37,763 bases of DNA from Erysipelothrix sp. (GTDB lineage: Bacteria > Bacillota_I > Bacilli_A > Erysipelotrichales > Erysipelotrichaceae), in NCBI GenBank assembly GCA_012841625.1, contig DUUI01000022.1, positions 1 through 37,763 on the forward strand, written 5' to 3'. The position numbers and the translations under genes were made by a program. Positions 9,957 to 18,576 of this stretch are shown here, one piece after another. Below the pieces are notes generated by a model. That model was given only the letters and a program-made list of their open reading frames with translations, did not search any database and had not been told where the DNA came from. Positions within the stretch are counted from its first letter, which is position 1, and each line of letters begins with the position of its first letter.

Positions 9957-11138
9957 ATGAGACAATTTAAAAATCAATTACCAGCTCAGTCTCCTGATGC
10001 CAAAAAACGCGAACAAATATTCAGACATCCTTATTTAAGTTTTATTTTATTAGGAGTCATTTTAATCTTAATTCTTTTAATGCAAACAAACGGATTCTTA
10101 GACATCGCCAGTTTTAGGGCAATCGGAGTTACATTAATTTATTTTGTAGCGGCTCTAGGATTTACATTGTTACTCGGATATTCAGGCCTAAACTCATTAG
10201 GAACAGCAGGCTTTATTGGACTTGGATCCTATTTAGCAGGATTACTTATTGCGAAACCAGGATATGACAACTTTGGTGAACTAATTGCTTACGGACTAGA
10301 CATCGAACCGATTATTGGTTTAATGATTGGTATTTTAGTTGCGATTGTTATCGGTGGTGTAGTCGGCTTTATTTCATTAAGAATTGAAGGTCTATACTTA
10401 GCCATTGTAACCTTAGGACTTTCCGAAATATTTGTAGAAATATTTAGAAACTTAGGAAAATTCACAGGCGGAGTTGATGGCCGAATCGTTAATAGAGGAT
10501 CATATCCTTCATTATTTGGTGTTTTTCCAGTTACTCGTGAAGTTGCCTTTATTATCTTAGCTGTTGTGATTGTGGTGGCGATGATCTTTGTTGTCAACTT
10601 AATTAAATCTCCAACAGGTCGCGCCATGTTAGCGCTTAAAAACTCAAGTTCAGCAGCTCAAGCGATGGGTGTTTCTATGTTGAAATATCGTCTAACAGCC
10701 TTCGTCCTAGCAACAGTCTTTGCTGTTGTTGCTGGTTATATGTATATGTTATTTTATCAATCGTCCTATGCCGATATTTGGACCTTGTCACTGTCTCTGA
10801 ATATCTTAGCTGCGGTTGTTGTTGGTGGAGCCTTTAATGTATGGGGAGTTTTTGCGGGTACATTCTTAATCTTTGGATTTGACCTAGCAATCCTTCAAAA
10901 CATTCAATTCTTTCAACAAAACTCAAATGCCTCCATTATCTTCAGCGGTGCATTGATTATATTAGTAGTCATGTTTTATCCCGGAGGAATTTCCCAAATG
11001 TTAGTTAATATTAAGAACTGGTATAACGAACGCCGATCTAAGAAATCGACTAGAAAGGATGCATATGCAAGAAATTCTGAGCTTAAACAAAAACAAGAAA
11101 AATTCATTAGTGAACAAGCTGCGAAAATTGGAAGATAA
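9957..11138 (+). CDS. livM: branched-chain amino-acid type ABC transporter permease LivM
   Basis: Second permease subunit, 393 residues. A 28-residue charged N-terminal segment precedes the first membrane helix. The LivM motif LLGYSGLNSLGTAGFIGLGSYLAG lies near 80-100 and the coupling loop SPTGRAMLALKNSSSAAQAMGVS near 220. A charged, probably helical cytoplasmic tail of about 45 residues follows the last membrane segment (NWYNERRSKKS onward, many Lys, Gln, Glu). The last 74 nt of this tail overlap the start of livG in another frame. The tail may pack near the coiled coil of LivG; that is inference. Confidence 0.9.
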   Translation: MRQFKNQLPAQSPDAKKREQIFRHPYLSFILLGVILILILLMQTNGFLDIASFRAIGVTLIYFVAALGFTLLLGYSGLNSLGTAGFIGLGSYLAGLLIAKPGYDNFGELIAYGLDIEPIIGLMIGILVAIVIGGVVGFISLRIEGLYLAIVTLGLSEIFVEIFRNLGKFTGGVDGRIVNRGSYPSLFGVFPVTREVAFIILAVVIVVAMIFVVNLIKSPTGRAMLALKNSSSAAQAMGVSMLKYRLTAFVLATVFAVVAGYMYMLFYQSSYADIWTLSLSLNILAAVVVGGAFNVWGVFAGTFLIFGFDLAILQNIQFFQQNSNASIIFSGALIILVVMFYPGGISQMLVNIKNWYNERRSKKSTRKDAYARNSELKQKQEKFISEQAAKIGR

Positions 11139-13098
11139 ACAAGTTAAATTAGAAAACAGAATTCCTTATCTAGAAGAAAAGATGAATAAACGTCATCAAC
11201 ATCAGATTGATAAACTAGACTATAAGCAGAAACAAAAATTGCTCATCTTAGAACAAAATGCTTTAGGTAAAGAATACTATGAGTATTTAAAAGACGAAAA
11301 AATCCAAGAACAACGTCATGATTTATATGGAAAACTTCAAGAAGCACAACAAGAAGTAGACAAACTTGAGCAACAACAAAATGAACAAACAACTGCCCTA
11401 ACACGCTTAGATGCTTTCAAAGTTAACATTGAAAACACTCGTAATGGATTAGGCGCAAACAAAATAACAAACCAAAGCAACATTATTTTAGTTGATGATG
11501 ATTCAGTAGAATCCTATGAAAAAGACATCATTAAGAAACTAGAAGGACATCGTGACAGCTTACAAGTTGAGATCACTAAAACTCAAACAGCTCTTGACCA
11601 ACTTGTCAGAGAAGAGCGCGATGAATCAAGTTTATATCGAAAATATGAAGATGAAGTAGCTGACTTTATTCACGGCTACTCATTAGTCAATGATTTATTA
11701 GGAGTCATTGTGGCTGATGGCGAATTACCAACTTTTAGTCAAACTGGTGAAGTAAGTTCTAATTTAAAGAAAACAAGCCAAATTCTTGATGAAGCTCTTT
11801 CTGAAGTGAATAGACAAAAAGCATTAATTGAAGAAAAACAAATTAGTGATGAAGAAGTATCAACACTTAGAAACACACATGAACAAAAGGTAAAAGAAAT
11901 CTTTGATGCATATGATGAAGTTGCCAAGTCAATCGAAGTTGAATTTTCTGAAGATAAATATGAAGCATGGCAGAAACAACACAATACATTAAATGTAACA
12001 GGCTCAGCACAACAAATTGTTGAATCAAATAAAAAAGAATATGATCGTCAACAAGCATTAGCTGATGAGGAAATGAATAAACTAGTCACTTCTTTAAATG
12101 AACAGAAGCAACAAAAGATTGACAGTGTTGAACCTAAGATTAAATCACAACTACAAGACCTTGATAAAGAAATTGAGGAAGTGAAGAAAGAAATCGACCA
12201 AGAAACAGGCCAAACTGTTAATAATTTGAGAAACAAAGCAGACCAGCTTACCAATCCTCAAGAACAAACTCAGTTTAAACAAGTCCTTGACATGGTTGAT
12301 AACCCAGAAGACAACACACAGTTATTTGTATCCAATTTAACGATGCAATTTGGTGGTCTGAAAGCTGTTAATGATCTTTCATTCCATGTTAATCGTAATG
12401 AAATTTATGGTCTCATCGGACCGAATGGTGCCGGAAAAACAACCGTCTTTAACTGTATTACACAATTCTATAAAGTTACAGATGGAACAATGTTATTTAA
12501 AAACGATCAAGGTCAATTAATTAACTTAACAGACTATAAAGTTCATGAAGTCATTGAACATGGAATAGTTCGTACTTTCCAAAATATTGAATTAATTGGT
12601 GAAATTTCTATTCTTGACAACATGTTGGTCGGAGCTCATTCAAGTTACCGCACTGGATTCTTTGAACACCTACTCCATTTACCAGCACTTCAAGCGGAGG
12701 AGTTTCAAAAAAGAACAAGAGCTCTACAAATATTAGAAAAATTAGGCTTAAGTGATGTTCAAGACCAACAACCCGTCGGCCTGCCGTATGGTGTTTTGAA
12801 GCGCATTGAACTTGCTCGTACCTTAATGTTAGAACCAAAACTAATCATTTTGGATGAACCAGCAGCTGGTCTAAATGAAGCTGAGACTCTTGAATTAGCA
12901 GAACTTATTCGCGATATACGGGATACATTTGATGTCACTATCTTCTTAGTTGAGCATGATATGGGCTTAGTTATGAGTGTCTGTGATCGCATCACAGCCA
13001 TAAGTTTTGGTAAACACTTAGCAACTGGTTCGCCTAGCGAAATCCAAAATCATCCACTTGTTCAAGAAGCATATTTAGGAGGACAAGGAAATGAGTAA
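11065..13098 (+). CDS. livG: LivG ATPase fused to a very long N-terminal coiled coil
   Basis: A 677-residue ABC ATPase where the family normally has about 255. Residues 1 to about 410 are highly charged, rich in Glu, Lys and Gln, without hydrophobic membrane segments, and have heptad-like character throughout (for example 20-110 and 320-395). A less helical break occurs around 200-235 (FIHGYSLVNDLLGVIVADGE). Residues about 418-677 are a complete LivG module: FVSNLTMQFGGLKAVNDLSF, Walker A GPNGAGKTT (452-460), Q-loop TFQN, signature LPYGVLKRIELARTL (usual LSYG is LPYG), Walker B LIILDEPAAGLN and H-loop VEHDM. No frame break separates the two parts. ATG 11065 is chosen over ATG 11059 because GAAAGGA gives correct spacing only to the former. 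It overlaps livM by 74 nt and livF by 8 nt. Confidence 0.88.
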   Translation: MQEILSLNKNKKNSLVNKLRKLEDKQVKLENRIPYLEEKMNKRHQHQIDKLDYKQKQKLLILEQNALGKEYYEYLKDEKIQEQRHDLYGKLQEAQQEVDKLEQQQNEQTTALTRLDAFKVNIENTRNGLGANKITNQSNIILVDDDSVESYEKDIIKKLEGHRDSLQVEITKTQTALDQLVREERDESSLYRKYEDEVADFIHGYSLVNDLLGVIVADGELPTFSQTGEVSSNLKKTSQILDEALSEVNRQKALIEEKQISDEEVSTLRNTHEQKVKEIFDAYDEVAKSIEVEFSEDKYEAWQKQHNTLNVTGSAQQIVESNKKEYDRQQALADEEMNKLVTSLNEQKQQKIDSVEPKIKSQLQDLDKEIEEVKKEIDQETGQTVNNLRNKADQLTNPQEQTQFKQVLDMVDNPEDNTQLFVSNLTMQFGGLKAVNDLSFHVNRNEIYGLIGPNGAGKTTVFNCITQFYKVTDGTMLFKNDQGQLINLTDYKVHEVIEHGIVRTFQNIELIGEISILDNMLVGAHSSYRTGFFEHLLHLPALQAEEFQKRTRALQILEKLGLSDVQDQQPVGLPYGVLKRIELARTLMLEPKLIILDEPAAGLNEAETLELAELIRDIRDTFDVTIFLVEHDMGLVMSVCDRITAISFGKHLATGSPSEIQNHPLVQEAYLGGQGNE

Positions 13099-17209: not shown

Positions 17210-18052
17210 ATGGAATATCTAAAATTAAATAATGATTTATCAATTCCAATAGTTGGCTATGGAGTCTACAAAATAGATGATCATGATGAATGTGTACAAT
17301 CAGTCTTAGATGCAATTGAGGTTGGATATAGATTAATCGACACAGCTCAACTCTATGTTAATGAAGAAGCAGTCGGTGAAGCGATTAGAAAGAGCGACGT
17401 CCCGCGTAAAGAATTATTTGTCATCACAAAAGTCTGGCCTGATAATGCTGGATACGACCAAGCAAAAAAATCGATTCAAGATTCGATTCAAAAACTTGGA
17501 CTAGACTATGTCGATTGTATTATGATTCACCAACCTTTTGGTGATTATTATGGGACCTACCGAGTCTTAGAAGAATTGTATGAACAAGGTGTTATTAAAT
17601 CTGTTGGGGTAAGTAATTTTTATCCATATCGACTCATTGACCTGATTCACTTCAACAATGTTGTACCTGTCATTAACCAAGTAGAGGCTCATGTCTTTGC
17701 TCAAAGACTTGATGAAAAAGAATTTATGGATGAACATAATATTGTCATGCAGGCATGGTCACCACTTGCTAGAGGTCAAAACAATCTATTCAAACACGAA
17801 TTATTAACCAAGATAGGAAATAACTACAACAAGACCCCTGCTCAGATTGCTTTAAAATATCTAGTTCAAAACAAAATTGCTATTATCCCTAAAACTATTC
17901 GTAAAGAACGAATGAAAGAAAACATCGATCTCTTTGATTTCAATCTAACTGATGATGAACTAGCTCAAATCAAAGAATTAGGGACAACCCACAGAATAAC
18001 AGATCACACAGATCTAGAAGTAGCTAAAGGCATTATCTACCGAGAGTATTAA
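17210..18052 (+). CDS. aldo/keto reductase
   Basis: NADPH-dependent oxidoreductase of the AKR superfamily (280 residues, TIM barrel), closest in layout to Bacillus 2,5-diketo-gluconate/glyoxal reductases. The catalytic tetrad is complete: Asp44 and Tyr49 in IDTAQLYVNE, Lys74 in VITKVW, and His107 in IMIHQPF. NADP-binding elements GVSNFYPYRL and IPKTIRKERMKEN are present. A GGAGGA site lies 6 nt upstream of the ATG. A possible TACAAT -10 lies at 17187-17192 without a good -35. The stop codon is inside the terminator hairpin. Substrate cannot be assigned. Confidence 0.92.
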   Translation: MEYLKLNNDLSIPIVGYGVYKIDDHDECVQSVLDAIEVGYRLIDTAQLYVNEEAVGEAIRKSDVPRKELFVITKVWPDNAGYDQAKKSIQDSIQKLGLDYVDCIMIHQPFGDYYGTYRVLEELYEQGVIKSVGVSNFYPYRLIDLIHFNNVVPVINQVEAHVFAQRLDEKEFMDEHNIVMQAWSPLARGQNNLFKHELLTKIGNNYNKTPAQIALKYLVQNKIAIIPKTIRKERMKENIDLFDFNLTDDELAQIKELGTTHRITDHTDLEVAKGIIYREY

Positions 18053-18066: not shown

Positions 18067-18290
18067 ATAAAAATCGTAAGGATCAAACAACATAAAAATG
18101 ACAAAGGCTCTAATTGTTGTGAATTCATCCCCATTGTTTACACAGTACCAAAAAACTTAGAATCCTTTTTTTAAAAAACTATAATTATTTATTAATATTT
18201 TTAGGAACATCCTATTTACTTGACTATAAAGACTCATGAAGAAGGAGTCTTAACAAGAATTATGTAAACGATATCCAAGTTTATAAAAAA
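18067..18290. other. AT-rich gene-free stretch with one hairpin
   Basis: No coding sequence is seen on either strand. It contains an isolated perfect 7-bp hairpin AAGACTC (18229-18235) / GAGTCTT (18245-18251) with no T-tract, and a TATAAA at 18282-18287 that could serve as -10 for the structured element that follows. The composition shifts sharply from very AT-rich to more GC-rich at about 18290. Confidence 0.5.
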
Positions 18291-18420
18291 AGAACCGTCG
18301 GGGTGACGGGGATAGCTCGGTAAATATGAGAAACCGCTGTTAGTAAAAACATACGCTAACAAGTATGCTTAGTTCCCAAGAAACTTTTTACACTGTTGAA
18401 GAAACAGTCTATCGAGGTGC
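18291..18420 (+). ncRNA. candidate structured non-coding RNA with H-type pseudoknot
   Basis: Dense complementary segments are visible here. Hairpin P1: CCGTC (18295-18299) / GACGG (18305-18309). Hairpin P2: CGGT (18318-18321) / ACCG (18333-18336), extended by two pairs past a bulge. Pseudoknot: GTTAG (18339-18343) with CTAAC (18356-18360), interleaved with CATAC (18350-18354) and GTATG (18363-18367). Possible closing pairs: GGGA (18309-18312) with TCCC (18374-18377), which competes with P1. Last hairpin: ACTGTT / AACAGT around 18392-18408. It matches no riboswitch, tRNA, tmRNA, SRP or RNase P motif I know. The GC-rich block faintly recalls 3' ends of IS200/IS605 tnpB elements (omega RNA), but no tnpB is present. 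Strand and boundaries are uncertain. Confidence 0.35.
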
Positions 18421-18576
18421 CTAAATGTCGCGATTGTAGTCTTTAATCCACTTAGGTTGAGAATGCTGACTGCAGCCTGAACATCCATCAGACTTTCTGT
18501 TTTTAAAAGATCTATACACAGAGAAACCAATGGCGATGGAAATAATACTAATTATTATGAAATCAGCTATAGTCAT
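18421..18576 (-). CDS. FeoB-associated Cys-rich membrane protein
   Basis: A 51-residue protein. One N-terminal membrane segment (about residues 5-20, DFIIISIISIAIGFSV) is followed by a basic patch and a DGCSGCSQH motif (Cys32 and Cys35), then a short polar tail. This is the arrangement of the FeoB-associated Cys-rich family found downstream of feoB in Firmicutes. The start overlaps the feoB end by 14 nt, and an AAGGAGAG site lies upstream within feoB, so it is the third gene of feoA-feoB-this. It probably assists ferrous iron uptake at the membrane; its precise role is not known. Confidence 0.85.
   Translation of the reverse strand: MTIADFIIISIISIAIGFSVYRSFKNRKSDGCSGCSQHSQPKWIKDYNRDI

What the first reader, a model, noticed from the sequence alone, without database searches (positions are those of the whole stretch)
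18291..18420. Candidate structured RNA with H-type pseudoknot between convergent genes
Within about 90 nt there are two hairpins, an interleaved 5-bp plus 5-bp pseudoknot (18339-18343/18356-18360 with 18350-18354/18363-18367), a possible long-range closing helix and a further hairpin. The block is clearly more GC-rich than the 220 nt before it and has no coding potential. It matches no riboswitch or housekeeping RNA I can name. One option is a stranded omega-like RNA left from an IS200/IS605 element whose tnpB is gone; another is an undescribed RNA. A TATAAA at 18282-18287 could start it.
Basis: partly seen in the sequence, partly recalled or inferred. Interest (0 to 1): 0.6.

Follow-up and report, generated by a model that had tools for sequence, protein, structure and literature searches.

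The report
TnpB guide-RNA scaffold lacking its nuclease gene

Summary
The RNA block is real and identifiable. Window 18289-18382 (+) is an omegaRNA (reRNA) scaffold of the ISEfa4 group of IS200/IS605 elements. It occurs 7 times in the window's own genome. Two copies lie directly 3' of a tnpB gene; five, including this one, have no tnpB. Over 100 relatives, nearly all in Firmicutes, mostly follow tnpB. Forty-nine sequences show compensatory changes (51 cells against 11 in shuffles).

The feature starts further left than reported. A left end, TTTAGGAA-N16-CTA (18200-18226), is shared exactly with both tnpB copies. Across the genome it occurs only at element copies. So 18200-18382 is a 183-nt non-autonomous derivative of a tnpB element.

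Between orphans the left-end boxes and the scaffold are conserved. The spacer, the N16 and the 3' tail are not. The conserved stem 4 and pseudoknot 3' strand of canonical omegaRNAs are missing here. A standard guide function therefore cannot be assumed.

Best reading: an orphan omegaRNA, transcribed from the left-end promoter and bound by TnpB made elsewhere. Transcription and binding are inferred.

The parts
18200..18226 (+). Left end of the element: TTTAGGAA (18200-18207), 16 variable bases (18208-18223), CTA (18224-18226)
   Evidence: The pattern TTTAGGAA-N16-CTA occurs 6 times in the 1.37 Mb genome: 4 orphan copies and both tnpB copies. The fifth orphan (L004) has TTTTAAGGAA-N16-CTATAAAG. 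G008 has it once, just upstream of its tnpB.
18224..18231 (+). CTATAAAG box, candidate -10 (TATAAA) 17 nt after TAGGAA; proposed promoter of the orphan RNA
   Evidence: Identical in all five orphans at fixed spacing with unrelated spacer bases; promoter function is inference
18232..18288 (+). Leader between the left end and the scaffold; 54-265 nt in the orphans and not alignable between them
18289..18382 (+). omegaRNA scaffold (ISEfa4 type) ending TTCCCAAGAA
   Evidence: 7 copies in own genome; model R1, 104.3 bits, E 6e-23
18295..18309 (+). 5' hairpin CCGTC/GACGG (the last G may also join the downstream GGGAU strand)
   Evidence: 96% of cells paired; two-sided changes at 2 of 5 pairs
18310..18376 (+). 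Closing helices GGA(18310-18312)/TCC(18374-18376) and AGC(18314-18316)/GCT(18367-18369)
   Evidence: GGA/TCC invariant, AGC/GCT 98% paired on 49 sequences; also found by RNAalifold. Invariance does not prove pairing.
18316..18335 (+). Short pseudoknot CUC(18316-18318)/GAG(18328-18330) with GGU(18319-18321)/ACC(18333-18335); competes with AGC/GCU for base 18316
   Evidence: 99% of cells paired; variation on one side only
18338..18361 (+). Stem 3a-like hairpin TGTTAGT/GCTAACA
   Evidence: Two-sided changes at 4 of the 5 inner pairs
18383..18420 (+). 3' tail where canonical copies have stem 4, GTTCA(A/C) and the guide; here it is unique sequence with a hairpin ACTGTT/AACAGT (18392-18397/18403-18408)
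   Evidence: No convincing similarity between tails of the copies; no second copy in own genome or in viral contigs
18295..18309 (-). On the minus strand the same hairpin is followed by TTCTTTTTTT, a terminator-like site for the feoB transcript

Best explanation
Window 18200-18382 is a non-autonomous, MITE-like derivative of a tnpB-only IS200/IS605 element of the ISEfa4 group. It keeps the left end, which probably acts as a promoter, and the omegaRNA scaffold, and has lost tnpB. Proposed working: (1) The left-end boxes start a plus-strand RNA near 18238 (inferred). (2) The RNA folds into the TnpB-binding scaffold 18289-18382; the fold is supported by covariation, binding is inferred from homology. 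(3) TnpB from one of the two intact-looking tnpB copies binds it in trans (inferred). (4) This copy lacks the conserved stem 4 and the GUUCA strand that forms the pseudoknot next to the guide, so it most likely no longer directs efficient cutting with its 3' flank; it would act as an inert, decoy or tracr-like RNA, or only through a replaced 3' hairpin. How likely I hold each step: identity as an omegaRNA scaffold 0.95; non-autonomous derivative 0.85; left end acts as promoter 0.6; currently bound by TnpB 0.45; canonical guide function 0.15.
For: Seven copies in the genome, two directly 3' of tnpB. Own TnpB, 376 aa joined from two contigs, is most like ISDra2 TnpB among natural solved structures, with the RuvC D, E and D residues present. 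In 106 stretches from named genomes the RNA mostly follows a TnpB 55-85% identical to this one. The model scores 114.6 bits on the RNA behind tnpB of ISEfa4. Compensatory changes exceed shuffled and slid controls and occur among the orphans themselves (5' hairpin and stem 3a). The left end is shared exactly by orphans and tnpB copies and found nowhere else in the genome. In the orphans, left-end boxes and scaffold are conserved while spacer, N16 and tail look random relative to each other. Canonical copies end with a UUUA-looped or longer hairpin and GTTCAA or GTTCAC, matching the ISDra2 omegaRNA (PMC10097598); the window does not.
Against: No RNA data exist, so transcription and TnpB binding are not shown. 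The interior of the orphans cannot be aligned with tnpB, except about 11 nt in L004, so internal deletion is not directly visible. All orphans and one tnpB copy lose similarity at the same base after CCCAAGAA; simple decay does not predict that, and it could mean a different right end or a processed RNA. No Y1 transposase was found in the genome, so how the copies spread is unexplained.
Confidence: 0.78

Rival explanations
1. Dead relic: an old element copy whose scaffold is still recognisable, with no present function.
For: Stem 4, the pseudoknot 3' strand and tnpB are lost; the tail matches nothing; folding energy is ordinary.
Against: Scaffold and left-end boxes stay conserved, with compensatory changes, while adjoining spacer and tail look random between copies. 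Uniform decay would blur all of them alike.
Confidence: 0.35
2. A small family of host-retained trans-acting guide or tracr-like RNAs: five orphan loci with their own promoters and one TnpB-binding scaffold, each tail giving a new target or regulatory function.
For: Orphans outnumber tnpB copies 5 to 2; promoter-like left end at fixed spacing; conserved scaffold; different tails.
Against: Tails lack GUUCA and stem 4. The only tail searched alone against viral contigs (the window's) has no hit, and none has a second match in the genome. TnpB looks catalytically intact, so it is not a TldR-like repressor. No conservation in the one same-genus genome held.
Confidence: 0.15
3. On the minus strand the hairpin plus T-run (18309-18284) is the intrinsic terminator of the feoB operon, and this is why the block is kept here.
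For: Terminator-like site on the minus strand: CCGTCACCCCGACGG TTCTTTTTTT; the feoB genes end at 18421.
Against: Other orphans have the same hairpin without such a T-run and other neighbours. It explains neither the multi-copy scaffold nor the left end.
Confidence: 0.2
4. Undescribed riboswitch or housekeeping RNA unrelated to transposons.
For: No Rfam family reaches its gathering score.
Against: Direct linkage of the same RNA to tnpB in this genome and in most relatives.
Confidence: 0.01

Closest known systems
ISEfa4 (IS200/IS605 family, Enterococcus) omegaRNA behind tnpB
   Same: 93-nt scaffold aligns end to end (model R1: 114.6 bits for ISEfa4, 104.3 for the window); TnpB about 69% identical to this genome's TnpB
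   Different: ISEfa4 carries tnpA and tnpB and ends with a long hairpin and GTTCAC; the window copy has neither gene, a different left end and no such 3' end
ISDra2 TnpB omegaRNA (reRNA) of Deinococcus radiodurans
   Same: Works like it: similar order of stems; the GGxAU pseudoknot strand fits GGGAU at 18309-18313; canonical relatives carry the UUUA-loop stem 4 and GTTCAA (PMC10097598)
   Different: No sequence match of model R1 to the ISDra2-like Deinococcus element; stem 4 and the 3' pseudoknot strand absent in the window copy
tnpB-less copies of the same RNA in other Firmicutes
   Same: Scaffold without upstream tnpB in Bacillus sp., Clostridium MAG, Staphylococcus microti, Enterococcus columbae and E. 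alishanensis, Gracilibacillus kekensis
   Different: Nearly all of those keep the canonical hairpin and GTTCAA or GTTCAC, so they may be ordinary MITEs with usable guides
RAGATH-18 reRNA of IS607 TnpB (PMC11061315)
   Same: TnpB-binding RNA 3' of tnpB, reported as a conserved RNA; 36% of RAGATH-18 RNAs were not next to a tnpB
   Different: Different RNA family (no Rfam hit in the window) and IS607 rather than IS200/IS605 context
Ref70, Enterococcus sRNA (Rfam RF02841)
   Same: First 45 nt resemble this scaffold: 24.6 bits on the window, 32.7 bits on the E. cecorum copy
   Different: Far below the family's cut-off of 115; the remainder does not match

Membership tests
TnpB omegaRNA (IS200/IS605, ISEfa4 group) | Homologous scaffold found directly 3' of tnpB | tested here: met
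   Two copies in own genome and most relatives; ISEfa4
TnpB omegaRNA (IS200/IS605, ISEfa4 group) | This copy itself adjoins tnpB | tested here: not met
   No tnpB at the locus; the only TnpB matches in the genome lie on contigs C50, C3, C82 and C47
TnpB omegaRNA (IS200/IS605, ISEfa4 group) | Conserved secondary structure with compensatory changes | tested here: met
   51 two-sided cells against 11 in shuffles
TnpB omegaRNA (functional guide RNA) | Stem 4 and 3' pseudoknot strand GUUCA next to the guide | tested here: not met
   Sequence after CCCAAGAA is unrelated to the canonical end
TnpB omegaRNA (functional guide RNA) | RNA is made and bound by TnpB | not testable with these tools
   No transcriptome or binding data
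IS200/IS605 non-autonomous derivative (MITE-like) | Both ends shared with an autonomous element in the same genome | tested here: met
   Left end and scaffold shared with the tnpB copies; the right end is shared only to CCCAAGAA
IS200/IS605 non-autonomous derivative (MITE-like) | Y1 transposase TnpA available in the genome | tested here: not met
   No PF01797 match in a 97% complete assembly
IS200/IS605 non-autonomous derivative (MITE-like) | Empty site in a relative | tested here: inconclusive
   The one same-genus genome has no alignable locus
TldR-type RNA-guided repressor | Catalytically dead TnpB partner | tested here: not met
   RuvC residues present in the only TnpB family of the genome

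The most novel reading that the evidence does not exclude
The five orphans are a retained set of independently promoted, TnpB-binding RNAs that act in trans. They have lost the crRNA-like end (stem 4 and GUUCA) and so resemble tracrRNAs or decoys that control a live TnpB nuclease: a natural split of the one-piece omegaRNA.
Probability: 0.12. Interest if true: 0.8.

Novelty: new variant of a known kind. Interest (0 to 1): 0.4.

Why it matters
If the orphans are expressed and bound by TnpB, they would show that TnpB scaffolds can outlive their gene and be served in trans, which bears on how one-piece guide RNAs split into crRNA and tracrRNA in CRISPR-Cas12. If they are inert, the finding still gives a clean annotation: a family of TnpB RNAs widespread in Firmicutes with no Rfam model that reaches its threshold, and a recognisable left end for a tnpB-only subgroup.

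Tried and rejected
Rfam at gathering scores: nothing. Folding energy: not exceptional on either strand. tRNA/tmRNA: none. Tails of all seven copies as guides against own genome: no second match; window tail against viral contigs: none; scaffold in viral contigs: none. The idea that TTTAGGAA-N16-CTATAAAG is peculiar to orphans was dropped: the same left end precedes tnpB. The idea that N16 is a spacer matching the tail was dropped on inspection of all copies. G009 hits of the left-end pattern proved to be chance, with no RNA or tnpB nearby. Degenerate protein gene: no TnpB similarity at the window locus. TldR-like repression: rejected because TnpB looks intact. Papers: no open-access report of tnpB-less omegaRNA loci with lost 3' ends was found, but the searches cover open-licence papers only, so this is weak evidence of absence.

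Full report
What is there. The window comes from a 1.37 Mb draft genome of 85 contigs. The stretch lies between an aldo/keto reductase gene (17210-18052, +) and a small FeoB-associated Cys-rich protein gene (18421-18576, -) that lies next to the 3' end of feoB. Rfam gives nothing at its thresholds and a weak match to the Enterococcus sRNA Ref70 (24.6 bits).

Multi-copy. A search of the own genome finds the block seven times at 74-91% identity. Copies on contigs C50 and C3 begin just after the stop codon of a tnpB gene. Five copies, on C79 (the window), C55, C8, C58 and C26, have no tnpB. The only TnpB-encoding stretches in the genome are on C50, C3, C82 and C47. From the contig ends I infer two tnpB copies: C82 plus C50, by an origin-like region and rnpA, and C47 plus C3. 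The middle of the second is not seen. The joined protein of the first, 376 aa, aligns over its length with ISDra2 TnpB (8bf8, 217 bits), with the RuvC D, E and D residues in place.

The RNA family. A scaffold pattern in named genomes gives 106 stretches, almost all in Firmicutes. In most of them a TnpB 55-85% identical to the own one ends 19-76 nt upstream, often after a tnpA gene. One hit, L104, is chance. In an E. faecium plasmid the RNA follows tnpB of a named element, ISEfa4. A covariance model built from 49 sequences scores 114.6 bits there and 104.3 on the window. The same model in 315 genomes of the order finds 18 with matches, in part with shortened stem 3.

Structure. On 49 sequences my drawn structure pairs in 88% of cells, with 51 two-sided changes against 11 in shuffles, and every slide destroys it. 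The support comes from the 5' hairpin and the stem TGTTAGT/GCTAACA. GGA/TCC and AGC/GCT are invariant or nearly so, so they are plausible but untested by variation. A short interleaved pair CUY/RAG with GGU/ACC is kept in 99% of cells. The window copy keeps the scaffold intact.

Comparison with ISDra2. Published ISDra2 omegaRNA has a 116-nt scaffold, stems 1-4 with a UUUA tetraloop at -20 to -17, a pseudoknot between -106/-102 and -6/-2, then a 16-nt guide (PMC10097598). Canonical members of the present family end ...CCCAAGAA-TCTCGTGAC-TTTA-GTCATGAG-AGGTTCAA and then flank. Counting back from the last A, TTTA falls exactly on -20 to -17 and GTTCA on -6 to -2. In the window GGGAU at 18309-18313 fits the other pseudoknot strand by position. 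Model R1 does not find the ISDra2-like RNA of Deinococcus aquaticus, so the relation to ISDra2 rests on the TnpB homology and on this architecture.

Left end. Both tnpB copies share their sequence from AATTTAGGAAC onwards, about 35 nt before the tnpB ATG. Every orphan has the same boxes upstream: TTTAGGAA, exactly 16 unrelated bases, then CTATAAAG; the C55 copy has TTTTAAGGAA. TTTAGGAA-N16-CTA occurs six times in the genome, all at element copies. In G008, another genus of the family, it occurs once, just before a tnpB gene 51% identical in protein. Two hits in the same-genus genome G009 are chance. Fixed spacing with free filling, a TATAAA or TATTAT box 17 nt after TAGGAA, and an ATG right behind it in the tnpB copies suggest a promoter. 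This is inference. Resemblance to an ECF-type promoter (GGAAC then CTATA) is a lead only.

Orphans compared with each other. Scaffolds align far above shuffles in all 21 pairs; spacers and N16 do so in no pair, and 3' tails in no convincing pair. The tnpB copy on C50 keeps a hairpin and TAGTTCAC after the scaffold; the copy on C3 and the five orphans do not. So the conserved unit is left-end boxes plus scaffold up to CCCAAGAA. The window copy lacks the strand that in ISDra2 pairs next to the guide. This argues against ordinary guide function and is the odd point of the case. The genome has no Y1 transposase, so the means by which the copies spread is open.

Interpretation. Shown: omegaRNA scaffold of the ISEfa4 group, without tnpB, with the left end of the tnpB element of the same genome, and with scaffold pairing kept among orphans. 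Inferred: transcription from the left end; binding by TnpB in trans; loss of guide function. Rivals are an inert relic and, not exclusive of either, use of the hairpin on the minus strand as the feoB terminator.

Novelty. TnpB RNAs and elements without their genes are known kinds, and tnpB-less copies with canonical 3' ends occur in several Firmicutes. Orphans that outnumber the tnpB copies, keep a promoter-like left end and lack the crRNA-like end look like a variant I could not find described in the open-access papers searched. Interest is moderate because function is untested.

Limits. One genome per species; contig breaks at the repeats; one same-genus genome; no RNA data; covariance E-values are rough; the order-wide model search used stricter filters.

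Noticed in passing
Rfam RF02841 (Ref70); window 18289-18371; L047 4758-4889: The Enterococcus sRNA family Ref70 resembles the 5' half of this TnpB omegaRNA (32.7 bits on an E. cecorum copy that lies behind tnpB). Ref70 may itself be an omegaRNA or a derivative of one.
   Followed up: partly
L061, L101, L111, L147 (Bacillus spp.); L089, L092 (Clostridium MAG); L128, L138 (Staphylococcus microti): tnpB-less copies of the same RNA with canonical right ends. The Bacillus ones share several hundred nt upstream, so they may be long repeats or remnants rather than short MITEs.
   Followed up: partly
L162 and L184 (G008), L156/L170/L177 (G069), L157/L171/L178 (G021): Shortened omegaRNAs of about 65 nt behind tnpB, in which the stem 3 region is cut down. 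Possibly useful as minimal TnpB guide scaffolds.
   Followed up: no
window 18284-18309, minus strand: The scaffold's 5' hairpin plus a T-run forms a terminator-like site for the feoB operon.
   Followed up: no
window 11059-13098 (+): A 679-aa ORF joins a long coiled-coil-like N-terminal part of about 400 residues to a branched-chain amino acid transporter ATPase (LivG-like) and overlaps the end of the preceding permease gene. Unusual fusion, or a frameshift or start-site artefact.
   Followed up: no
G000:C82 end and C50 start: One tnpB element copy appears to sit beside the replication origin, between a region of DnaA-box-like repeats and rnpA.
   Followed up: no
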